Origin: Peristeroidobacter soli
GTDB taxonomy: Bacteria; Pseudomonadota; Gammaproteobacteria; Steroidobacterales; Steroidobacteraceae
Length of the DNA: 64,000 bases
Assembly (NCBI RefSeq): GCF_004138485.1
Contig: NZ_RYEV01000003.1
Location: 1,240,001 to 1,304,000 of the forward strand
Direction: 5' to 3'
Under the pieces are notes generated by a model. That model worked only from the letters and a program-made list of their open reading frames with translations, searched no databases and was not told where the DNA came from. Made by a program: the position numbers and the translations under genes. Below, in pieces: positions 10,181 to 49,412 of the stretch; the stretch's first letter is position 1; each line of letters starts with the position of its first letter.

Positions 10181-10191
10181 GAAGTGACACC

Positions 10192-11217
10192 ATGCCGGCC
10201 CGTGTTCAAGACCGCATCAGCCTGTTGGGCTTTGGCAGTGCCGCCATCGGCAACCTGTACCGTCCGGTGACCGACCAACAAGCCTTCGCCACCGTCCAGG
10301 CCGCCCTGACCGAAGGCGTTCTCTATATGGACACGGCGCCTCACTACGGTTTCGGGCTGAGCGAAAAGCGGCTCGGTGCCGCGCTCGCCGAGCTCGATCC
10401 GCGCCGGCGCGTAGTGATTTCGACCAAGGTCGGCCGACGCCTCGATCCCCGCCCGGACGCCGATTTGAGCCAGGTGCGTCAGGGCTTTGTCTCGCCCGAG
10501 CCCTTCGAAAGCGTGTTCGATTATAGCTACGACGCGGTGATGCGCTCTTATGAAGAGAGTCGCGCACGCCTGCGCCGGGACATCGATGTTCTCTATGTGC
10601 ATGACCTCGGGCGCTACGCCCATGGGGAGCGGCATCCGAAATTGTTTGCCGAATTCATGGCGGGTGGCTATCGCGCGCTTCGGAAACTTCGCGATGGCGG
10701 GGCGGTGAAGGCCATCGGGCTCGGCGTCAACGAGTGGCAGGTGTGTGAAGAAGCGTTGGCGCACGGTGACTTTGACATCATGTTGCTCGCCGGCCGTTAC
10801 ACGCTGCTGGAACAAGGGGCGCTCGACACTTTTCTACCGCTCTGTAAGCAGCGAAAAGTCTCCATCGTGGTCGGAGGCCCGTACAATTCCGGAATTCTTG
10901 CCCATGACGGGCGCAACGGAATGGGGAGGACGGGCCCTTTGATGTACGAATATCAGCCAGCGCCACCGGACATCGTCGCCCGGGTGTCGGCCATCGAAGC
11001 GGTTTGCAATCGTCACGATGTGCCGCTGGCCGCGGCCGCCCTGCAGTTTCCGCTGGCTCATCCGCAAGTGATTTCTGTGATTCCCGGCATGGGCAATCCG
11101 GATGAGGTGCGTGGTGCGAAGGAGTGGCTGACGCTGCCGATTCCCGGCGCCTTCTGGGCCGAGTTGCGCGCGCAAGGACTGGTTCGACCCGATGCTCCGC
11201 TGCCGGTGATCGCATGA
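10192..11217 (+). CDS. Aldo/keto reductase, probable L-fucose / D-threo-aldose 1-dehydrogenase
   Basis: First gene of the sugar-acid operon, 341 residues. The AKR catalytic set is visible: Asp in [10 protein letters not shown], Tyr in the same block, Lys in [10 protein letters not shown], and a His in VLYVHDLGR. Full-length similarity pattern is to D-threo-aldose 1-dehydrogenases, which oxidise L-fucose, L-galactose or D-arabinose at C1 to the lactone with NAD(P). The next gene starts inside its stop codon. The downstream mutarotase, lactonase, dehydratase and dehydrogenase fit this as step one of the pathway. Confidence 0.85.
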
Positions 11218-12359: not shown

Positions 12360-13331
12360 ATGCCCCGTCCCAGTCTGCTCATTACGCGTCGTTTGCCCGC
12401 TGCGGTGCTGGAACGCTTGCGCGCCAGCTATGAAGTGACCGTGAACCCCGACGATCGCGCGCTCGGACGCGAAGCGCTGCTGATGGCGCTGCGAAGTTAC
12501 GATGCGCTGTCGCCGACGATCACGGACAAGCTGGATGCGGCCTTGTTGCTCAACTCCGGCCTGAAGACGCGGATCATCGCCAACTTCGGTGCGGGCTTCG
12601 AGCACATCGATCTGGAGGCTGCGAAACAAGCGCACCTGGTCGTGACCAACACGCCGGATGCGCTCACCGACGCGACCGCCGAGCTCACGATTCTTTTGAT
12701 CCTGATGGCGAGTCGTCGAGCCGGTGAGGGCGAGCGCTCGTTGCGTGAAGGCAAGTGGAGCGGTTGGGCGCCGACGCAATTGCTCGGCATGGATGTGAAA
12801 GGCAAGACGCTGGGCCTGATCGGCTTCGGTCGTATCGCCAAGGAAGCGGCGCGTCGTGCTCGCGCCGGGCTCGGCATGCGCATCGCATATCACTCACGCA
12901 GTCGGGCCAGTGCCGAAGAAGAAAGCGCGCTCGGCGCCGAGCATCATCCGACACTGGATGGTTTGCTCGCCGCCTCCGACGTCGTGTCGTTGCACTGTCC
13001 GGGGGGCGCGGCCACGCGTCACTTGATCAACGCGAGCACGCTGTCGCGAATGAAGTCGACGGCGATTCTGATCAACACGGCGCGGGGCAGTGTGGTCGAC
13101 GAGGACGCGCTGGCGACGGCGCTCGCGCAACGACAGATCGCCGCGGCCGGTCTCGATGTGTATGAGCGTGAGCCGGCGGTGTCGCCGGCATTGCGAGAGC
13201 TGGAAAATGTCGTCCTGCTGCCGCATTTGGGAAGTGCAACGCTGGAAGCGCGTACTGCCATGGGCATGCAAATGGCCGACAATCTGGACAGCTTTTTCGC
13301 CGGCCGAACCCCACCGAACCGTGTTGCCTGA
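12360..13331 (+). CDS. D-isomer-specific 2-hydroxyacid dehydrogenase (glyoxylate/hydroxypyruvate reductase)
   Basis: A 323-residue NAD(P)-dependent dehydrogenase. Rossmann loop GLIGFGRIAKEAARR, then the catalytic trio Arg (INTARGSVVDE), Glu (GLDVYEREP) and His (LLPHLGSAT). This is the GyaR/GhrB pattern: reduction of glyoxylate or hydroxypyruvate to glycolate or D-glycerate. The next gene is a D-glycerate kinase that overlaps its end, so hydroxypyruvate to D-glycerate is the likely reaction here. Confidence 0.85.
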   Translation: MPRPSLLITRRLPAAVLERLRASYEVTVNPDDRALGREALLMALRSYDALSPTITDKLDAALLLNSGLKTRIIANFGAGFEHIDLEAAKQAHLVVTNTPDALTDATAELTILLILMASRRAGEGERSLREGKWSGWAPTQLLGMDVKGKTLGLIGFGRIAKEAARRARAGLGMRIAYHSRSRASAEEESALGAEHHPTLDGLLAASDVVSLHCPGGAATRHLINASTLSRMKSTAILINTARGSVVDEDALATALAQRQIAAAGLDVYEREPAVSPALRELENVVLLPHLGSATLEARTAMGMQMADNLDSFFAGRTPPNRVA

Positions 13332-14160
13332 ACCGCAGTCCGCCGCCGACATCATCGCGCACGCCATCGACGAGCGTTCCCCCTCACGATCGCGGCGGCC
13401 GCTGGTCGTCGGCGTGTGCGGCAGTCAGGGCAGCGGCAAGAGCACGGTCTGCAAGACGCTGACGACCCGCTTCACGCAGGCGGGCCTGAAGGTCGCGAAT
13501 CTTTCTCTCGATGATTTGTATTTGCCACTGGCGGAGCGGGTCACGCTCGCGAGACACGTGCATCCCTTGCTCCGGACGCGCGGCGTGCCTGGTACGCATG
13601 ATACGAAGTTGGGGGTTCACACGTTGAATGCGCTCGCGCACGGCGGAGACGTGCCGCTGCCTCGCTTCGATAAGTCCATCGACGATCGCCGGCCCAAGGC
13701 CCAGTGGGATTCGGTCGAAGGGCCGGCGCAGCTGGTGTTCTTCGAAGGCTGGTGCGTGGGCGCTCGGCCGCAAGCGCTCGGGCCGTTGGATCAACCCGTC
13801 AATGAGCTCGAAGCCAATGAGGATGTCGATGGCCGGTGGCGTCGCTATGTGAACGACGCGCTTGGCGGCGAGTATCAGCGGCTGTTCGCGAAAATCGATT
13901 TGCTGGTGCTGCTCGCGGCGCCATCGTTCGACGTGGTGTTGAAGTGGCGCACTCAGCAGGAACACGAGCTGCGCCAGCAATCGGGAAACAAAGCCGGCGT
14001 GATGACGGACGCGGCGCTGGTGCGTTTCATCCAGCACTACGAGCGCCTGACTCGTCACATCTTGATCGAGATGCCGGGACGCGCCGACCTGGTGATTCGT
14101 CTGTCGCCTGAGCGCGCCGTGCTCAGCCGGCACTCAAACCATGCCGAGAATCCGCTGTAG
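13321..14160 (+). CDS. D-glycerate kinase (GLYK-type P-loop kinase)
   Basis: A 279-residue kinase beginning at GTG 13321 inside the end of the dehydrogenase gene. Walker A is GVCGSQGSGKST near residue 37, followed by LSLDDLYLP and FFEGWCVGARP, which are signatures of the plant/yeast-type D-glycerate 3-kinase family related to uridine kinases. It would phosphorylate D-glycerate into glycolysis. The overlap with the reductase gene supports a two-step hydroxypyruvate salvage. It ends convergently with the GntR gene, overlapping by 27 bases. Confidence 0.82.
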   Translation: MLPEPQSAADIIAHAIDERSPSRSRRPLVVGVCGSQGSGKSTVCKTLTTRFTQAGLKVANLSLDDLYLPLAERVTLARHVHPLLRTRGVPGTHDTKLGVHTLNALAHGGDVPLPRFDKSIDDRRPKAQWDSVEGPAQLVFFEGWCVGARPQALGPLDQPVNELEANEDVDGRWRRYVNDALGGEYQRLFAKIDLLVLLAAPSFDVVLKWRTQQEHELRQQSGNKAGVMTDAALVRFIQHYERLTRHILIEMPGRADLVIRLSPERAVLSRHSNHAENPL

Positions 14161-43381: not shown

Positions 43382-46264
43382 ATGCACGCACTCGATTTCA
43401 TCGATCCAGGCACACCGGCGGTGCCGGAGCCCGCCGCCGGCGCGGTCAAGCAAGTGACCGTCGAAATCGACGGCTTCAGCGTCACCGTGCCCGACGGCAC
43501 GTCCATCATGCGCGCGGCCTCGCAGCTGGGGAATCAAATTCCCAAGCTGTGTGCGACCAGTTCGCTAAAAGCGTTCGGCTCCTGCCGGCTGTGTCTGGTG
43601 GAGATCGAGGGGCGCAAAGGATATCCGGCGTCGTGCACGACGACCGTCGCCGATGGCATGAAGATCCGCACCCAGAGCGAGAAGCTCGGTCAGCTGCGCG
43701 GCAACGTGCTCGAGCTGTATCTCTCCGATCATCCGTCCGAAGCGGAATGCTGTTCCAGCAACAACCGCTGCGAGTTGCATGAAATGGCGGCGGCTGCGGG
43801 CGTGAGCGAATCACGTTACTCGTTGTCTGGAGTCGATGGGATCGCTGCCGGTCGCACGCATCAGCACTCGTCGAAGGACGAGAGCAATCCTTACTTCGTC
43901 TTCAATCAGGATGCCTGCATCGTCTGCTCCCGTTGTGTGCGAGCTTGCGACGAGGTTCAGGGAACGTTCGCGCTGACCATCGAGGGGCGCGGCTTCGATT
44001 CGAAAGTGTCGGCGAGTCAGGCCGAGTCGTTCCTGGATTCTGAATGCGTGTCCTGCGGCGCCTGTGTCGAGGCGTGCCCGACGACGGCGCTCACTGAAAA
44101 GTCCGTGCTGTCGCTCGGCAAGGCCGAGCAAGCAATCGCCACGACCTGCGCCTACTGCGGTGTCGGCTGCACATTCAAAGCGGAGATGAAGGGTGAGCAG
44201 GTCATCCGCATGGTGCCGTATCGCGAAGGCCATGCGAATCACGGTCATGCCTGCGTGAAAGGGCGGTTTGCCTACGGCTACGCCACGCACGCCGATCGCA
44301 TCACCAAGCCGATGATCCGGAGCAAGATCACCGATCCGTGGCGCGAAGTGAGCTGGGACGAAGCGATCAACTACGCGGCCGCCGAGTTCAAGCGCATCCA
44401 GGCGAAGTACGGCCGGGATTCGGTGGGCGGGATCACGTCCTCCCGCTGCACCAACGAGGAAACCTTCCTGGTGCAGAAGCTGGTGCGTGCCGCGTTCGGC
44501 AACAACAACGTCGATACCTGCGCCCGCGTGTGTCATTCGCCCACTGGCTACGGCCTGAAGAACACGATCGGCGAATCGGCGGGCACGCAGGAATTCGACT
44601 CGGTGATGCAAGCCGATGTGATCATGCTGATCGGCGCCAATCCCACCGAAGGCCATCCGGTGTTCGCCTCTCAGATGAAGCGCCGGCTGCGTCAGGGCGC
44701 GAAGCTGATCGTCATCGATCCGCGCCAGATCAAGCTGGTGCGCACGCCGCACATCGAGGCGGACTATCACCTGCAGCTGCGCCCGGGCACGAACGTCGCG
44801 CTGATGAATTCCATTGCGCATGTGATCGTGACCGAAGGCCTGGCGCACGATGAGTACATCACCGATCGTTGCGAGGCGCAGTCCTGGGAGAAATGGCAGG
44901 CGTTCGTCAGCGATCCGAAGAATTCGCCGGAGGCAATGGAAGCGATCACGGGTGTGCCGGCCATGGCCGTGCGCGCCGCCGCCAGGCTGTATGGGTCGGC
45001 TCCGAATGGCGCGATCTACTATGGTCTTGGCGTTACCGAGCACAGTCAGGGCACGACGATGGTCATGGCCATCGCGAACCTCGCCATGGCTACGGGAAAT
45101 CTGGGGCGTGTCGGCGTCGGTGTGAATCCGCTGCGCGGTCAGAACAACGTGCAGGGCTCGTGCGACATGGGCTCGTTCCCGCATGAGTTCAGCGGTTATC
45201 GCCACGTGTCCGACGACGCGGTTCGTGCGACGTTCGAGTCGGAGTGGGGCGTGGAGCTGGACTCCGAGCCGGGACTACGCATTCCGAACATGTTCGAAGC
45301 CGCCCTCGATGGCAGCTTCCGCGCACTTTATATCCAGGGCGAGGACATCGCGCAGTCCGATCCGAACACCAATCATGTGACCGCGGCGCTGACGGCGATG
45401 GAATGTGTCGTCGTGCAGGACTTGTTCTTGAACGAGAGCGCCAAGTTCGCGCACGTGTTCTTCCCGGGCTCTTCGTTCCTGGAGAAGAACGGCACGTTCA
45501 CCAATGCCGAGCGTCGTATCGGCCGGGTGCGCAAGGTCATGCAGCCGCTCGGCGGTCTGGAAGATTGGGAGGCCACCGTGCGTTTCTCGAATGCACTGGG
45601 CTATCCCATGAGCTACACGCATCCCTCGCAGATCATGGACGAGATCGCCGCGCTCACGCCGACGTTCACGGGTGTGAGCTACGAGAAGCTCGACAAGCTC
45701 GGCAGCATCCAGTGGCCGTGTAACGAGGCGGCGCCCGATGGCACGCCGACGATGCACATCGGTCAGTTCGTGCGCGGCAAGGGCAAGTTCTTCGTGACGG
45801 ACTATGTGCCGACGCGCGAGAAGACGACGAGCCGCTTCCCGCTGCTGCTGACGACCGGGCGTATTCTCACTCAATACAACGTGGGCGCGCAGACGCGCCG
45901 GACTCTCAACGTGGTGTGGCACGATGAGGATCGGTTGGAGATTCATCCGCACGACGCCGACGTGCGCGGCATTCTCGAGGGCGACTGGGTCGGCATCGCG
46001 AGCCGGGCTGGCGAGACGGTGTTGCGCGCGCAGGTGACGGATCGGGTGCAGCCCGGCGTCGTCTATACGACGTTCCACTTCCCGGAATCCGGCGCGAACG
46101 TCGTGACCACCGACAACTCGGATTGGGCGACGAACTGTCCCGAGTACAAGGTGACGGCGGTGCAGGTCGTGAAGGTCAATCAGCCCTCGGAGTGGCAGAA
46201 GCGATATCACGAGCTGACCGAGCGAAATACGCGCATTCGGCGCGACGCGGACGTGCATGTCTGA
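43382..46264 (+). CDS. fdsA: NAD-dependent formate dehydrogenase alpha (molybdenum) subunit
   Basis: A 960-residue catalytic subunit. N-terminal [2Fe-2S] domain (ATSSLKAFGSCRLCLVEI), His-ligated cluster region (SDHPSEAECCSS), two ferredoxin-type [4Fe-4S] clusters (CIVCSRCVRACDE; CVSCGACVEACP), then the molybdopterin domain with TCAYCGVGCTF. The residue that ligates molybdenum is a normal cysteine codon TGT in ARVCHSPTGYG, not selenocysteine. It oxidises formate to CO2 in the cytoplasm. The enzyme may also detoxify formate from C1 metabolism. Confidence 0.95.
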   Translation: MHALDFIDPGTPAVPEPAAGAVKQVTVEIDGFSVTVPDGTSIMRAASQLGNQIPKLCATSSLKAFGSCRLCLVEIEGRKGYPASCTTTVADGMKIRTQSEKLGQLRGNVLELYLSDHPSEAECCSSNNRCELHEMAAAAGVSESRYSLSGVDGIAAGRTHQHSSKDESNPYFVFNQDACIVCSRCVRACDEVQGTFALTIEGRGFDSKVSASQAESFLDSECVSCGACVEACPTTALTEKSVLSLGKAEQAIATTCAYCGVGCTFKAEMKGEQVIRMVPYREGHANHGHACVKGRFAYGYATHADRITKPMIRSKITDPWREVSWDEAINYAAAEFKRIQAKYGRDSVGGITSSRCTNEETFLVQKLVRAAFGNNNVDTCARVCHSPTGYGLKNTIGESAGTQEFDSVMQADVIMLIGANPTEGHPVFASQMKRRLRQGAKLIVIDPRQIKLVRTPHIEADYHLQLRPGTNVALMNSIAHVIVTEGLAHDEYITDRCEAQSWEKWQAFVSDPKNSPEAMEAITGVPAMAVRAAARLYGSAPNGAIYYGLGVTEHSQGTTMVMAIANLAMATGNLGRVGVGVNPLRGQNNVQGSCDMGSFPHEFSGYRHVSDDAVRATFESEWGVELDSEPGLRIPNMFEAALDGSFRALYIQGEDIAQSDPNTNHVTAALTAMECVVVQDLFLNESAKFAHVFFPGSSFLEKNGTFTNAERRIGRVRKVMQPLGGLEDWEATVRFSNALGYPMSYTHPSQIMDEIAALTPTFTGVSYEKLDKLGSIQWPCNEAAPDGTPTMHIGQFVRGKGKFFVTDYVPTREKTTSRFPLLLTTGRILTQYNVGAQTRRTLNVVWHDEDRLEIHPHDADVRGILEGDWVGIASRAGETVLRAQVTDRVQPGVVYTTFHFPESGANVVTTDNSDWATNCPEYKVTAVQVVKVNQPSEWQKRYHELTERNTRIRRDADVHV

Positions 46265-47087
46265 AGCCAGAGCCGTGCCGGCGACGAGTTGTGAGGTCAC
46301 GGTCCATCGCTGGCGCGATGGCGACATCGAGCGCGTCGCCGATCAGGTGGCCGAAGAGCTGCCGGTATCGCTGGTGTTCAACGGCGTGCCGCATGTGGTG
46401 ATGCTCGCGACGCCGGCGAACCTGGAAGATCTCGCCATCGGCTTCACGTTGAGCGAGGGCATCGTCGACTCGCCGAAAGAGATCGTGTCGGTCGAGTCGG
46501 CGACGCGTGACGACGGAACGCTCGAAGTGCGCATCGGCATCACCGCCTCGAAGCTGTCCGAGCTGCTACGGCGCCAGCGAAACATGACGGGTCGCACCGG
46601 TTGCGGTCTGTGTGGTGCGCAGACGGTGGAAGATGCGATCCGTTCGCCGGCGCCGGTGCAGGGCGGGGTGAGTGTCGATGTGACGTCGCTGCACGATGCG
46701 TTGAGAAACCTGCGTGACCGGCAGGAGATCAATCTGCGGACCGGCAGCGTTCACGCCGCTGCCTGGGTGATGCCGGAGTCCGGCATCAAGCTGGTGCGTG
46801 AAGATGTCGGCCGGCACAACGCACTGGATAAGGTCATCGGGGCGGTGGTTCGCGCCGGTGGCGATTTCAACTATGGATACTTCGTGGTGACCAGCCGCGC
46901 GAGTTATGAAATGGTTCAGAAGGCAGTCACGGTCGGTGGCACGTTGCTCGCCGCGGTGTCCGCTCCCACCGCGTTCGCCATTCGCATGGCGGAGTCGGCG
47001 GGCCTGACGTTGATCGGCTTCGCGCGTGAGCATCAACACGTGGTCTACGCTCATCCTTCGCGACTTCTATGCACATCGACTACTTAG
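46257..47087 (+). CDS. fdhD: Formate dehydrogenase accessory sulfurtransferase
   Basis: A 276-residue FdhD protein overlapping fdsA by eight bases. The conserved CxxC loop is in GRTGCGLCGAQTVEDA, and the cofactor-binding C-terminal block is in REDVGRHNALDKVIGA. FdhD transfers sulfur from IscS to the bis-MGD cofactor, required for formate dehydrogenase activity. Its presence in the operon supports a functional molybdenum enzyme. Confidence 0.94.
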   Translation: MSEARAVPATSCEVTVHRWRDGDIERVADQVAEELPVSLVFNGVPHVVMLATPANLEDLAIGFTLSEGIVDSPKEIVSVESATRDDGTLEVRIGITASKLSELLRRQRNMTGRTGCGLCGAQTVEDAIRSPAPVQGGVSVDVTSLHDALRNLRDRQEINLRTGSVHAAAWVMPESGIKLVREDVGRHNALDKVIGAVVRAGGDFNYGYFVVTSRASYEMVQKAVTVGGTLLAAVSAPTAFAIRMAESAGLTLIGFAREHQHVVYAHPSRLLCTSTT

Positions 47088-47302
47088 TTCGCATGGCCAA
47101 CGACATCGGCGCCTTCTTCGCCAACGAGGAAGACAAGAAAGTCGCGGCTGCGAGTATTCGTCAGCACATCCATAGGTACTGGGATCCCCGGATGCGCTCG
47201 CGGATCATCGCGTACTACAACGAAACCGGCGGGGGCGAGCTCGAAGGTCCGGTGCGGGCCGCGATTCAGCAGCTGGCCGAGGAAACCGCGGCCAAGGCTT
47301 GA
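47069..47302 (+). CDS. fdsD: NAD-dependent formate dehydrogenase delta subunit
   Basis: A 77-residue helical protein overlapping fdhD by 19 bases. The sequence pattern LVRMANDIGAFFANEED ... HIHRYWDPRMRSRI is the FdsD signature. It is needed for assembly or stability of the Fds complex. Its stop codon lies in an 18-bp perfect palindrome. Confidence 0.92.
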   Translation: MHIDYLVRMANDIGAFFANEEDKKVAAASIRQHIHRYWDPRMRSRIIAYYNETGGGELEGPVRAAIQQLAEETAAKA

Positions 47303-47317
47303 TCTAGATCTAGATCA
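47300..47317. terminator. 18-bp perfect palindrome over two convergent stops
   Basis: TGATCTAGATCTAGATCA is its own reverse complement. It begins with the fdsD TGA and contains the TAG of the minus-strand gene ending at 47310. It can form a cruciform or RNA stem in both transcripts; no T tract. Confidence 0.5.
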
Positions 47318-47774
47318 AACCGAACTCGCGCATCGCGGGTTCGAAGTTTTCGTTGGAATGACCGGGGCGGGTGAGCTTGAAAATCGCGAACCGTTGCAAC
47401 GGGCTCAGTGCGGCCCACTGCGCCGGCGTCGGCGGCGTGACGTCGCGCTCCATCGAATAATCCACCACGCGCTCTGGCACGCTGTTGGTGTCGTTCCATT
47501 CGGCGCCATCGTCTCTGTCCAGCAGCTGCGCCGGCTGGTGGGTCCGGTTCTCGATCACGCCCGCGACGTAGCGACCGTAATCGTCGATTTCGACCGGGGT
47601 GTCGCAGGCCTGCGCGACCAGCAGCTCGCGCTCGTCGAGCGAGAAATGATTCCATTGTTTCAACGACACCTTGACTCCGCACAGATCCAGCTTGCGGCGC
47701 ACGGCCATGGGAATGCAGTACAGGGCGCCGGCAAAATCCTTTTCGAACTGAAAGATCGTGGCGTTGGTGTTCAT
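47310..47774 (-). CDS. Nitrate reductase-associated protein family
   Basis: A 154-residue soluble protein with the family's early block FQFEKDFAGALYCIPMAVRRKLDLCGVK, here broken as FEKDFAGALYCIPM and RRKLDLCGVKVSLKQW. The family is named from its position next to assimilatory nitrate reductase in cyanobacteria; biochemical role unknown. Here it sits beside a formate dehydrogenase, another Mo-bisMGD enzyme, which suggests a role tied to molybdenum enzymes rather than nitrate as such. Confidence 0.78.
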   Translation of the reverse strand: MNTNATIFQFEKDFAGALYCIPMAVRRKLDLCGVKVSLKQWNHFSLDERELLVAQACDTPVEIDDYGRYVAGVIENRTHQPAQLLDRDDGAEWNDTNSVPERVVDYSMERDVTPPTPAQWAALSPLQRFAIFKLTRPGHSNENFEPAMREFGLI

Positions 47775-47792: not shown

Positions 47793-47830
47793 TAAAAATA
47801 AACGGGCCCAGCGGTTGCCCGCCGGGCCCG
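47793..47830 (-). terminator. Intrinsic terminator of the HNH/tRNA-like unit
   Basis: On the minus strand CGGGCCCGGCGG-GCAA-CCGCTGGGCCCG forms a 12-bp stem (one G-U) with a GNRA-type GCAA loop, followed directly by TTTATTTTTA. This is the best intrinsic terminator in the window. It must end a minus-strand transcript coming from the right, i.e. from the HNH gene and the structured RNA, because no other minus-strand gene lies between. Confidence 0.8.
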
Positions 47831-48174
47831 GGTGCGTCCATGCCTCAGCTCCGTGTCGCGCGCCTCAGGTCGCGGGGACCTGGATGACAGATAATCGTCC
47901 AACGCGCGACCGTCACGAGTCGCGCCGCTTGTATAGGTCCGAGGCCACCCCACGCCTGTCGCGCGGTCGTCGCGGTCGATGCGGTCATCGCCGATGCAGG
48001 CGATTGTCGTCAGCGCTTGCGCCTCCCTGCGCGAGCGAATATTCGACAATCACGTTGCACCGGGCCCGGCCGCATCGAGCTGCGACGCTCAAGGCTTGGC
48101 ACGCGTTGCGGTTCATTGCTGACCGCAGGGGTACCTCGGGTGCGAAGCTTTCGCTTCGCGAGGTGATGCTTGAC
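47831..48174 (-). ncRNA. Structured non-coding stretch, 3' part of a probable RNA
   Basis: No convincing ORF. On the minus strand several perfect stems follow each other: GCGAAGC-GAAA-GCTTCGC (48142-48159, GNRA loop) closed by ACCTC/GAGGT; GATTGTCG/CGACAATC (48044-48051 with 48002-48009) around an inner GCGC stem; GCGCGAC/GTCGCGC near 47910; AGGTC/GACCT near 47875. With the terminator at 47793 they look like the 3' half of a structured RNA. Family unknown. Confidence 0.45.
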
Positions 48175-48237
48175 TGGCATCTACAGGGGGAGTCGAACCC
48201 CGGCCTTGCGGCCTTACCTGCGACTTTTTCAGAGTCG
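48175..48237 (-). ncRNA. Partial tRNA-like module (Phe-type anticodon arm)
   Basis: Minus strand: a perfect anticodon-type arm CGACT-CTGAAAA-AGTCG with the loop expected of a tRNA-Phe (GAA), then GGCC-GCAA-GGCC like a long variable arm, a T arm GGGG-TTCGACT-CCCC, and a TGTAGATGCCA end that mimics an acceptor with CCA. There is no D arm, and no standard 5' acceptor half; CATCTGC inside the neighbouring module could pair with GTAGATG. It is either a fused remnant or a purpose-built mimic. Confidence 0.45.
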
Positions 48238-48240
48238 TGA

Positions 48241-48311
48241 TTGCAATAGAGGGAATCGAACCCTCGACCGAGCAGATGAACTGCTTGCTCTACCCACTGA
48301 GCTACATTGCT
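48241..48311 (-). tRNA. tRNA-like gene, CAU-type anticodon, aberrant anticodon loop
   Basis: Minus strand 71 nt with canonical D arm (GCTC-AGTGGGTA-GAGC), variable loop CGGTC and T arm GAGGG-TTCGATT-CCCTC. The acceptor has six of seven pairs (GCAATG with TATTGC); the outermost pair is A-A. The anticodon stem AGCAG/CTGCT closes a five-base loop TTCAT instead of seven, so CAT sits in the loop but in a non-standard geometry; shifting the stem would put TCA in the anticodon. No encoded CCA. Probably not a normal translating tRNA. Confidence 0.5.
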
Positions 48312-48362
48312 GTCGGATCAGGCGAACTCCCGCGTCGGTACACACAGCAGCAGGGCTGCAGC

Positions 48363-48396
48363 GTGCCAGTGTGGTGGAACCCACAGCCGCTGACAC
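48363..48396 (-). ncRNA. Acceptor/T-arm-like minihelix
   Basis: On the minus strand GTGTCAG pairs with CTGGCAC (7 bp, one G-U), enclosing a CGGC bulge and TGTGG-GTTCCA-CCACA. The hairpin has the size of a tRNA acceptor plus T arm. It lies between the HNH gene and the tRNA-like modules. Confidence 0.35.
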
Positions 48397-48461
48397 TGAA
48401 GTTACGGGCCTGGACCGTTGGTATCGATGCACGCTCGCGCGCGCATCGAAATTCTTGTTGG

Positions 48462-48489
48462 CGGCGGACGGCAACAGTTCCGTCCGCCG
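48462..48489 (-). terminator. 10-bp hairpin directly after the HNH gene
   Basis: CGGCGGACGG - 8-base loop - CCGTCCGCCG is a perfect stem starting six bases after the HNH stop codon. No T tract follows (the next minus-strand bases are CCAACAAG), so read-through into the structured RNA is plausible. Another 7-bp stem (TCGATGC/GCATCGA) is at 48424-48449. Confidence 0.5.
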
Positions 48490-48494
48490 ATGTT

Positions 48495-49067
48495 TCATTC
48501 GTTCAAGTGCAGTCGCGAGCTTCGCGGCACGCCCAGGAGCAGGAACTCCATCTGGTCGGCCAGAATCTTGCGATTGCTCAGAATGAACGCCTCGTACCGG
48601 TTCGGCACGTACGGCACATAGTGCAGTTTCATGCCCGCCGCTTCGGGAGTGCGGTCCGCCTTGCGGTGGTTGCACGCCTTGCAGGCAGCGACCAGGTTCA
48701 TCCACGAGTCCGCGCCGCCCTTCGACTTCGGCACGATGTGCTCCAGATCGAGCTGGTCGGCGCGGAACCGCTGCGCGCAGTAGGCGCAGATGTAACGGTC
48801 GCGTGCCAGCAGCATGTCCTTGTTCAAGGTCGGTACCACATCGAAGTGCCGGATCATGAAATCCCGGCCCTTGATGGCGATGATCGAGCTGGCTCGAATC
48901 ATCGACTGCAACCCCGTCAGCCGCTGCGTACCCCCGTGCAGCACGAACTCGTGCTGACCGGCGGCCCACGCGATCATGTCGGTGGCGTAGTACTGCGCGG
49001 CCTGACGAACGTTGATCCACCGGTGCGGAGCGCCGGCGACGTCAAGCGCGAGAATGTGCGGACTCAT
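48495..49067 (-). CDS. HNH endonuclease
   Basis: A 190-residue protein with a very strong ribosome-binding site (AGGAGGAG) before ATG 49067. The HNH/Zn domain is at about residues 90-150: RDRYICAYCAQRF (CxxC), DLEHIVPKSKGG (catalytic His), and ACKACNHRKADRTP (second CxxC with Asn-His). The N-terminal 90 residues are a conserved helper region (RQAAQYYATDMIAWAAGQ). Stand-alone HNH nucleases of this size may be homing or repair/defence nucleases. Unusual: a 310-bp hairpin-rich leader and tRNA-like RNA downstream. Confidence 0.85.
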   Translation of the reverse strand: MSPHILALDVAGAPHRWINVRQAAQYYATDMIAWAAGQHEFVLHGGTQRLTGLQSMIRASSIIAIKGRDFMIRHFDVVPTLNKDMLLARDRYICAYCAQRFRADQLDLEHIVPKSKGGADSWMNLVAACKACNHRKADRTPEAAGMKLHYVPYVPNRYEAFILSNRKILADQMEFLLLGVPRSSRLHLNE

Positions 49068-49383
49068 CGTGGCTCCTCCTGTGTAGTGGTCGAACGAACC
49101 AACCCGTGAGCTGAGGGGCGGCCTCACGCGCACGCGTGCTTTGAAACAAATCTGGACCAGACACTTGAAGGGGGTGGCCGGCGGGGATTCCCGCGCGACC
49201 TGGCTCCTTCGATGCCCCGTCCGGCTTACGCCTCGGGGCAGGAGCCCTGGGCGTTAGCAGCGACCTGAATGCGACGGGCAGCCGAGCACGCCGCGAATGA
49301 ATTCGCGTGGCGTGTTCTCAGAGGCGTTGCCGTGTTTCAGGTGCATGTATTCGGTGGATTGACGAAAGTTCAAACCGGCGGCG
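49068..49383 (-). other. Hairpin-rich 5' leader of the HNH gene
   Basis: No ORF of note. Nested stems: GGCTCC (49202-49207) with GGAGCC (49241-49246), enclosing TGCCCCG/CGGGGCA and a GGC/GCC stem with a four-base loop; CACGCC-GCGAAT (49287-49298) with ATTCGC-GT-GGCGTG (49301-49314); CGTGAG/CTCACG near 49105-49130; and TCTGG-A-CCAGA near 49155. This density of perfect stems over 300 bases suggests a folded RNA leader, or the end of a separate RNA gene. Confidence 0.45.
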
Positions 49384-49412
49384 AGTCTAGCAATGGAATA
49401 TTTCAACCACAA
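49384..49412 (-). promoter_or_regulatory. Candidate sigma-70 promoter for the HNH unit
   Basis: On the minus strand TTGTGG (-35, 49407-49412), a 17-base spacer and TAGACT (-10, 49384-49389), in an AT-rich patch. Transcription would start near 49377 and run through the leader, the HNH gene and the structured RNA to the terminator at 47793. Motif match is moderate. Confidence 0.4.

What the first reader, a model, noticed from the sequence alone, without database searches (positions are those of the whole stretch)
47793..49412. HNH endonuclease embedded in a long structured RNA unit with tRNA-like modules
On the minus strand a promoter candidate (49384-49412), a 310-base leader full of perfect stems, an HNH gene with a very strong ribosome-binding site, a 10-bp hairpin, an acceptor-like minihelix, a nearly complete tRNA-like element and a partial Phe-like tRNA module, more stems with GNRA loops, and a textbook intrinsic terminator follow each other with no other gene. 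The tRNA-like modules deviate from working tRNAs in a systematic way (five-base anticodon loop; missing D arm). Known parallels are tRNA arrays with HNH genes on phages and plasmids, and large ornate RNAs found next to phage tRNAs. Possible roles: tRNA decoy against anticodon nucleases, a guide or target mimic for the HNH protein, or a mobile element. I know of no described system with this exact layout.
Basis: partly seen in the sequence, partly recalled or inferred. Interest (0 to 1): 0.82.

Follow-up and report, generated by a model that had tools for sequence, protein, structure and literature searches.

The report
tRNA-mimic RNA of RNA-repair operons
The stretch holds a conserved, apparently undescribed RNA built from tRNA look-alikes whose anticodon loops keep changing; relatives sit in front of a gene of bacterial RNA-repair operons, a compact form also in many E. 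coli, so it may be bait or a sensor for enzymes that cut tRNAs.

Summary
Minus strand 48174-48411 encodes a structured RNA of three modules: A, a three-way junction; C, a cloverleaf without encoded CCA or 1:72 pair, with a 5-nt anticodon loop; D, a second anticodon-type arm plus T arm, no D arm. Covariation supports them. Rfam covers only C, as 'tRNA'. A model of A finds relatives in Pseudomonadota, mostly just upstream of a slipin (SPFH) gene that often neighbours rtcB, rlaP or rtcR: E<=1e-4 in 14 of 19 slipin genomes (9 in training) and 4 of 350 others. A compact form precedes slipin in 1624 of 5426 complete E. coli genomes. In the window genome slipin was deleted, leaving its 3' end and terminator. 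In relatives the cloverleaf body is conserved while loops vary: 15 middle triplets among 25 seven-nt loops, 16 of 41 loops not 7 nt. Best reading: a tRNA mimic that presents variable anticodon arms to tRNA-cutting nucleases or repair proteins; decoy about 0.45, untested. HNH is a separable partner under purifying selection.

The parts
49068..49412 (-). Leader upstream of HNH (300 nt: 73% identical to S. agaridevorans G001, 53% to G008) and promoter-like block TTGTGG-N17-TAGACT (TTGTGA in G011, G001)
   Evidence: no sigma-70 site by scan; inference
48498..49067 (-). HNH endonuclease, 190 aa, strong ribosome-binding site; dN/dS 0.09-0.15 against four relatives
48462..48489 (-). 10-bp hairpin after HNH; stem kept with different letters in relatives (by eye, not counted)
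48318..48411 (-). Module A: three-way junction, long helix P1 (duplex with own partner -20.1 vs mean -7.8 kcal/mol with other species' partners), P2 (GG..UUC..CC), P3; core 48332-48397
48242..48311 (-). Module C: tRNA-like cloverleaf with 6-bp acceptor, no 1:72 pair, no encoded CCA, 5-nt anticodon loop
48276..48280 (-). Anticodon loop UUCAU of module C (CUCAUAA, CUCAGAA, CUCACAA, CUUCGA, CUCAUAA in five congeners)
48221..48237 (-). Module D, arm 1: anticodon-type arm CGACU-CUGAAAA-AGUCG
48174..48220 (-). Module D, rest: GGCC-GCAA-GGCC hairpin, T arm GGGG-UUCGACU-CCCC, then UGUAGAUGCCAG; no D arm and no 5' acceptor strand found
47937..48181 (-). 3' region up to where slipin would begin; 84% identical over 246 nt to G001 (overlaps the last 8 nt of module D)
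47851..47886 (-). Remnant of the slipin 3' end and what follows it (92% over 36 nt to G001): slipin was deleted here
47793..47830 (-). Intrinsic terminator; a GC hairpin with U-rich tail lies after slipin in G008 and G001 (by eye)

Best explanation
Modules A-C-D are one member of a conserved tRNA-mimic RNA family that lies upstream of slipin, in many genomes within slipin/RtcB RNA-repair gene clusters (shown by sequence comparison). The cloverleaf and the second arm present anticodon-like loops on a constant tRNA-like body; loop sequence and length change freely, and decoding features are missing (shown). Inferred: when tRNAs are being cut, the operon is switched on and the RNA is made as bait or competitive inhibitor, occupying anticodon-reading nucleases (or, after cleavage, the repair enzymes) while RtcB and RlaP repair real tRNAs and, in the tRNA-array versions, fresh tRNAs replace lost ones. 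In the window genome the tRNA array and slipin are gone, and RNA plus HNH remain as a short unit ended by the old operon terminator. HNH is a separable partner of unknown role.
For: Covariation: A, 37 double-change cells vs 10.9 shuffled; P1, 0 of 10000 permutations as good; C, 250 vs 73; D arm, 104 of 110 cells paired vs mean 63. ARAGORN hits within 700 nt upstream of slipin (window included) against the 146 other plus-strand hits in the same loci: CCA end 8 of 40 vs 137 of 146; 1:72 paired 20 of 40 vs 136 of 146; anticodon not 3 nt ('???') 12 of 40 vs 2 of 146. Within three clades loop identity is 0.60-0.66 against body 0.87-0.89, while the first tRNA after slipin is Arg(gcg) in 5 of 7 loci L173-L179 (a Leu in L175 and L176). 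One loop would read UAA (L215). RNA-repair context: slipin with rtcB (PF01139), rlaP (PF10127) and rtcR (PF06956). A sigma-54-like site (1 mismatch) starts 35-51 nt upstream of A in 6 of 33 loci (L222, L225, L259-L262), 4 of them among the 6 loci with rtcR in the stretch; the window has none. Precedent: the YrlA tRNA-like domain of rsr-yrlBA-rtcBA has been proposed to inhibit an anticodon nuclease competitively (PMC7790460, passages). The RNA persists where slipin was lost (window; E. coli TUM12355).
Against: No expression, binding or cleavage data. A 5' UTR position in front of slipin fits a cis-regulatory leader as well. In the E. coli strains compared the hairpin does not vary and C is reduced to its T arm, so variable bait is not universal. 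19 of 25 seven-nt loops keep U33 and 17 of 25 end UAA at 36-38 (vs 14 of 73 array loops), which looks more constrained than free bait. In C the window lineage has 4 private changes against 1 in G001 (in A 1 against 3), so C may be decaying here. Of the class genomes with slipin, 5 of 19 gave no model match at E<=1e-4. 8 of 40 elements do end in CCA. The precedent YrlA was reported not to be cut by the nuclease in question (PMC7790460, passage), so a mimic need not be a substrate.
Confidence: 0.48

Rival explanations
1. Cis-acting leader: the RNA is the structured 5' UTR of slipin (and rtcB/rlaP). Processing or nuclease cleavage of the tRNA-like parts and religation by RtcB tune expression, a damage-sensing switch in the message itself.
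For: The parsed cloverleaves start 279-699 nt upstream of slipin on the same strand (the 700-nt limit was mine); the RNA follows a sigma-54-like site directly in 6 of 33 loci.
Against: The window copy has no slipin and ends at a terminator, yet A and C stay 89-95% identical to two relatives that keep slipin, against 54-68% for the A-C spacer; E. coli TUM12355 also lost slipin, although rlaP still follows there; in L210 RNA and slipin are about 1.4 kb apart.
Confidence: 0.25
2. Scaffold or tether: like Y RNA with Ro60 and PNPase, the tRNA-like part docks tRNA-binding or repair proteins and module A docks slipin or RtcB.
For: YrlA in rtcBA operons is a modular RNA with a protein-binding stem plus tRNA-like domain (PMC8394870, passages); here slipin takes Rsr's place; A is kept where D is missing (L045, L184, L211, L225) or C is reduced (L217, E. 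coli).
Against: Does not explain variable anticodon loops; in the window genome slipin is lost and the RNA kept.
Confidence: 0.2
3. tRNA-array debris: modules C and D are decayed tRNAs left from a lost array.
For: Three of the congeners carry arrays (22, 3 and 6 ARAGORN hits, C module included); the window has none.
Against: Same modules with covariation in genomes with no array; A is no tRNA; body conserved across families; loops vary but stems compensate.
Confidence: 0.04
4. Guide or omega-type RNA for the HNH protein.
For: Adjacent in Steroidobacter and relatives, same strand; HNH under purifying selection.
Against: No HNH in the stretches around the RNA in 15 of 18 class loci; HNH without a module A match in G011 (L033) and in the 74 loci L047-L120.
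Confidence: 0.03

Closest known systems
YrlA / bacterial Y RNA in rsr-yrlBA-rtcBA operons (PMC7790460, PMC8394870: passages read)
   Same: Modular RNA with tRNA-like domain encoded in an RtcR/RtcB RNA-repair operon; proposed competitive inhibitor of an anticodon nuclease
   Different: No Ro60/TROVE in 14 of 14 genus genomes (other taxa not tested); slipin instead; the YrlA domain is described as like the D, T and acceptor arms, whereas here full anticodon arms with changing loops, one to three cloverleaves and a separate three-way junction; no Rfam hit other than tRNA
Stress-induced tRNA operon of Anabaena: trn operon, rtcB, slipin and HNH genes rise in the trcR mutant (PMC10272220, passages)
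   Same: The same partners (tRNA array, RtcB, slipin, HNH) appear together in one response; in Povalibacter, G040 and G210 they form one gene cluster
   Different: No tRNA-mimic RNA in the passages I read ('tRNA-like' occurs 0 times in that text); repressor TrcR rather than RtcR
tRNA array units with HNH genes (e.g. Mycobacterium, PMC5966550: search listing only)
   Same: tRNA arrays with an HNH gene inside, as in G007, G002, G010
   Different: The window has no array left; the conserved RNA is not an array tRNA
PaFlo8, SPFH gene in the P. aeruginosa rtc locus (PMC13086221, passages)
   Same: SPFH gene inside an rtcA/rtcB/rtcR locus
   Different: 'tRNA' does not occur in that paper's text; sequence of that locus not examined here
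GOLLD / ROOL ornate RNAs (PMC12286853: search listing only; link to phage tRNAs recalled)
   Same: Large structured RNAs found near phage tRNA genes
   Different: No such Rfam match in window or 18 relatives

Membership tests
Functional tRNA | 7-nt anticodon loop | tested here: not met
   Window 5 nt; 16 of 41 parsed C modules not 7 nt; ARAGORN anticodon not 3 nt in 12 of 40 vs 2 of 146 array hits
Functional tRNA | 7-bp acceptor stem and CCA end (encoded by the array tRNAs of the same loci) | tested here: not met
   Window A-A at 1:72, no CCA; CCA 8/40 vs 137/146, 1:72 paired 20/40 vs 136/146
Functional tRNA | Aminoacylated and used in decoding | not testable with these tools
   needs charging assay
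Bacterial Y RNA (YrlA) | Partner Ro60/Rsr (TROVE) encoded | tested here: not met
   0 of 14 genus genomes; other taxa not tested
Bacterial Y RNA (YrlA) | Matches a curated Rfam family | tested here: inconclusive
   only RF00005 at gathering; whether YrlA itself has an Rfam model was not checked
Bacterial Y RNA (YrlA) | tRNA-like domain in an RtcB operon | tested here: met
   rtcB and/or rtcR beside RNA-slipin in several relatives; not in the window itself
Slipin-associated RNA family (this report) | Module A model match | tested here: met
   window 60.2 bits, but it is in the training set; of 8 untrained slipin loci six score 33-61 bits, L222 18.4, truncated L209 17.2
Slipin-associated RNA family (this report) | Slipin downstream | tested here: not met
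   deleted in the window genome, remnant left
HNH-guided RNA (HEARO/omega-type; recalled) | RNA travels with the HNH gene | tested here: not met
GOLLD / ROOL | Rfam match | tested here: not met

The most novel reading that the evidence does not exclude
A widespread RNA family whose job is to display exchangeable anticodon stem-loops on a fixed tRNA-like chassis: an evolvable bait (or fuse) against tRNA-cutting toxins and defence nucleases, induced with the RNA-repair machinery, with loops that diversify in an arms race.
Probability: 0.35. Interest if true: 0.93.

Novelty: new variant of a known kind. Interest (0 to 1): 0.82.

Why it matters
RtcB and RtcR repair systems are widespread, yet their natural substrates, the role of slipin and the reason for tRNA-like RNAs beside them are open. 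A conserved RNA with a constant tRNA body and changing anticodon loops points at the attacker (anticodon nucleases) and offers a direct test. A compact form in 1624 of 5426 complete E. coli genomes makes it accessible. My searches of the held PMC library listed no paper naming such an RNA; that library is incomplete, two of the lists were capped (20 of 27 and 20 of 49 shown), and I judged most entries by title and start of abstract only.

Tried and rejected
Rfam with permissive thresholds: apart from tRNA only hits far below their gathering scores. HNH as anchor: the HNH homologues outside the genus showed few tRNAs and no strong module A match. Ro60/Y RNA: no TROVE in the genus. Phage origin: the phage HNH hits I saw are 32-53% identical (best 20 of 99 records); the one viral-contig slipin hit (L281) looks like the E. 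coli locus (rlaP of Citrobacter matches it at 88%), so probably bacterial DNA. Single-sequence fold energy: not significant. Model matches without slipin: G631 (7e-8) starts at the edge of a predicted ORF in a run of membrane-protein ORFs, no slipin or rtcB in 16 kb, no tRNA by ARAGORN, taken as chance; G339 lies at a contig end; G583 and G997 no slipin in the stretch; G057 and G170 not examined. MAFFT could not align P1, so it was tested by swapping arms between species. D identity was a script error, redone. The first array control parsed only 86 of 146 array tRNAs (60 dropped; one of the 86, in L210, is probably a C module), so it was repeated on all 146 with ARAGORN alone, where the 1:72 contrast is weaker (20 of 40 instead of 14 of 41). 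PtuB-type HNH similarity covers only the HNH core and is not used. rtcB lies elsewhere in the window genome.
Full report
WHAT IS THERE. On the minus strand, in order: leader, HNH gene 48498-49067, a 10-bp hairpin, module A (48318-48411), cloverleaf C (48242-48311), module D (48174-48237), a 3' region, and a terminator (47803-47830). The minimum-energy fold of 48170-48422 shows every module, but its energy alone is ordinary (13 of 200 shuffles as good).

COMPARISON WITHIN THE GENUS. The HNH protein has relatives in 56 of 60 related genomes, the window's own included, in two groups: a copy of 39-47% identity nearly everywhere and an 82-94% copy in six congeners besides the window. In Povalibacter (G007) the close copy lies in a cluster: 5 tRNAs - rtcB - 16 tRNA hits (one on the other strand) - HNH - RNA - slipin. 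In G008 the order at the same chromosomal place as the window is GGDEF gene - HNH - RNA - slipin - nitrate-reductase-associated gene - fdhD (the flanking names are by sight). The window genome lacks this slipin (best match only 5e-7), but 47851-47886 matches the slipin 3' end of G001 and the terminator is kept, so slipin was deleted in place. G011 kept HNH but shows neither slipin (2.1e-7) nor a module A match. HNH is under purifying selection: dN/dS 0.09 (G011), 0.10 (G001), 0.12 (G008), 0.15 (G010) against the window copy. A is 92 and 95% and C 91 and 89% identical to G001 and G008, whereas the A-C spacer is 54 and 68%; D is 86 and 88%.

THE RNA FAMILY. Slipin relatives were found in 16 of 296 genomes of the order (E<=1e-70) and, with its N-terminal part, in 19 of 369 of the class (E<=1e-6). 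I fetched 18 of the latter (all but G042, already held). ARAGORN sees one to three tRNA-like elements within 700 nt upstream of slipin in 13 of these 18, mostly without an array in the stretch; a parser adds L213 and L216. Over 37 loci, window included, the parser gave 41 cloverleaves in 34 loci (none in L210, L217, L219, although L210 and L219 hold one that it missed); two rows that were module D misread as C were dropped, as were 7 rows further than 700 nt upstream, and the loops of three (L038, L178, L179) were set by hand. Rfam gave nothing but tRNA on 18 relatives.

COVARIATION. Module A, 23 sequences: 98.2% of cells paired, 37 cells changed on both sides against 10.9 in shuffles, slid registers at most 62% paired. 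P1 arms pair better on average with their own partner than with other species' partners: -20.0 against -12.1 kcal/mol, 0 of 10000 permutations as good, the same for 15 divergent sequences; but in 10 of 23 at least one foreign partner pairs more strongly, and L179 is worse than average with its own. Module C, 41 sequences: 94.3% paired, 250 double-change cells against 73, slid registers at most 43.5% paired; the number of further pair types does not exceed shuffles (109 of 500 as high). D arm: 22 arms that I picked by eye; in the other 15 of 37 loci I recognised none with a 7-nt loop (L035 and L209 have 9-nt loops). 104 of 110 cells paired, shuffles 63 on average and 83 at most. Related sequences inflate such counts, but the slid controls, which keep relatedness, stay far below in A and C.

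NOT ORDINARY tRNAs. By ARAGORN alone, elements within 700 nt upstream of slipin plus the window copy against all 146 other plus-strand hits in the same loci: CCA end 8 of 40 vs 137 of 146; 1:72 paired 20 of 40 vs 136 of 146; anticodon not 3 nt 12 of 40 vs 2 of 146 (one of the 146, in L210, is probably a C module). In the 41 parsed C modules 16 loops are not 7 nt (five of 5 nt, nine of 6 nt, two of 8 nt); the 25 seven-nt loops carry 15 middle triplets, 19 keep U33, and 17 end in UAA at positions 36-38 against 14 of 73 in array tRNAs (only 86 of 146 array tRNAs could be parsed there). Within three clades bodies are 0.87-0.89 identical and loops 0.60-0.66. D-arm loops follow C-U-N-N-N-A-(C/A) (C32, U33 and A37 each in 21 of the 22 picked arms), most often CUGAAAC; 15 distinct loops among 22.

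ASSOCIATION TEST. Model R1 of module A was built from 26 sequences, window included. In the same 369 class genomes it matches at E<=1e-4 in 14 of 19 slipin genomes (9 of the 14 in training; 5 of the 10 untrained) and in 4 of 350 others: the window genome itself, G631 (no slipin or rtcB near, taken as chance), G339 (contig end, rtcB on the contig) and G583. In the order it matches all 16 slipin genomes at E<=1e-6 (14 in training) and, at that level, 1 of 280 others, the window genome; G057 (7e-5) and G170 (8e-4) are weaker. A phylum sample of 349 gave five new matches at E<=1e-4; four (G951, G936, G813, G777) have slipin starting within 1.5 kb downstream, two of them (G951, G813) outside the class; the fifth (G997) does not. 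E-values from this model are rough.

RNA-REPAIR CONTEXT AND E. COLI. In Citrobacter, Burkholderia and Photobacterium records the order is rtcR (divergent) - RNA - slipin, followed by rlaP (Citrobacter), rtcB and rlaP (Burkholderia) or rtcB (Photobacterium) (rlaP in Burkholderia by similarity to the Citrobacter protein). A sigma-54-like site starts 35-51 nt upstream of module A in 6 of 33 loci, not in the window. R1 scores 31.1 bits in Photobacterium and 21.4 in Burkholderia but only 14.3 in Citrobacter and 9.9 in E. coli, so membership of the compact enterobacterial forms rests on position and on shared motifs seen by eye (GGCAC...GUGUUCCG, a T arm, a hairpin). The E. coli region (RNA part plus slipin) is in 1624 of 5426 complete genomes, 1621 with at least 80% cover. 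One strain, TUM12355, lost slipin but kept the first 231 nt of that region and the rlaP-type gene. Between the five E. coli strains compared the hairpin is invariant, which speaks against fast diversification there.

MECHANISM. Shown: a conserved structured RNA, tied to slipin and in part to RtcB/RtcR/RlaP, with tRNA mimicry and freely changing anticodon loops. Inferred: it acts on, or is acted on by, something that reads anticodon arms. The closest printed idea is that the YrlA tRNA-like domain, itself not cut, inhibits an anticodon nuclease (PMC7790460, passages read); in Anabaena a tRNA operon, rtcB, a slipin gene and HNH genes rise together in a repressor mutant (PMC10272220, passages); an SPFH gene sits in the P. 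aeruginosa rtc locus (PMC13086221, passages). I give decoy/inhibitor about 0.45, cis leader 0.25, scaffold 0.2. The HNH protein is a companion in some lineages, of unknown role.

VERDICT. Observation confirmed; interpretation partly supported: real and probably undescribed as an RNA family, but HNH is not its centre, and the window copy is a reduced, slipin-less member.

Noticed in passing
window 43382-47302 (+) and 47310-47774 (-): NAD-dependent formate dehydrogenase genes (alpha subunit, FdhD, delta subunit; names by sight, not from a search) end next to the unit, followed by a nitrate-reductase-associated-type gene.
   Followed up: no
G000:C2:253927-254490 and copies in 56 of 60 genomes: An HNH paralogue of 39-47% identity is nearly universal in the sampled relatives, suggesting a housekeeping role for this HNH family.
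   Followed up: partly
L036:12397-19595: In Povalibacter the tRNA-array/rtcB/HNH/slipin cluster lies near type I restriction-modification and AbiU-like genes.
   Followed up: partly
L173 (oriented 12593-13516) and L175 (oriented 10190-11128): A ~310-aa protein without Pfam match (tested for L173) follows HNH/RtcB in L173 and HNH in L175; the starts look similar by eye (EIIDCLP..TPF.YF.DRYA).
   Followed up: no
C modules (L180, L218, L220, L222, L225) and L262, L276, L278: Where cloverleaves are in tandem, the first copies often have short or odd loops and the last a 7-nt loop, often ending UAA (a t6A-type motif, recalled). By eye, not counted.
   Followed up: partly
L259:6680-7003; L274:5285-6211: In E. 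coli the compact RNA lies 3' of a TGGCACGCTTCTCGCA site; a zeta-toxin-family gene is nearby in some strains.
   Followed up: no
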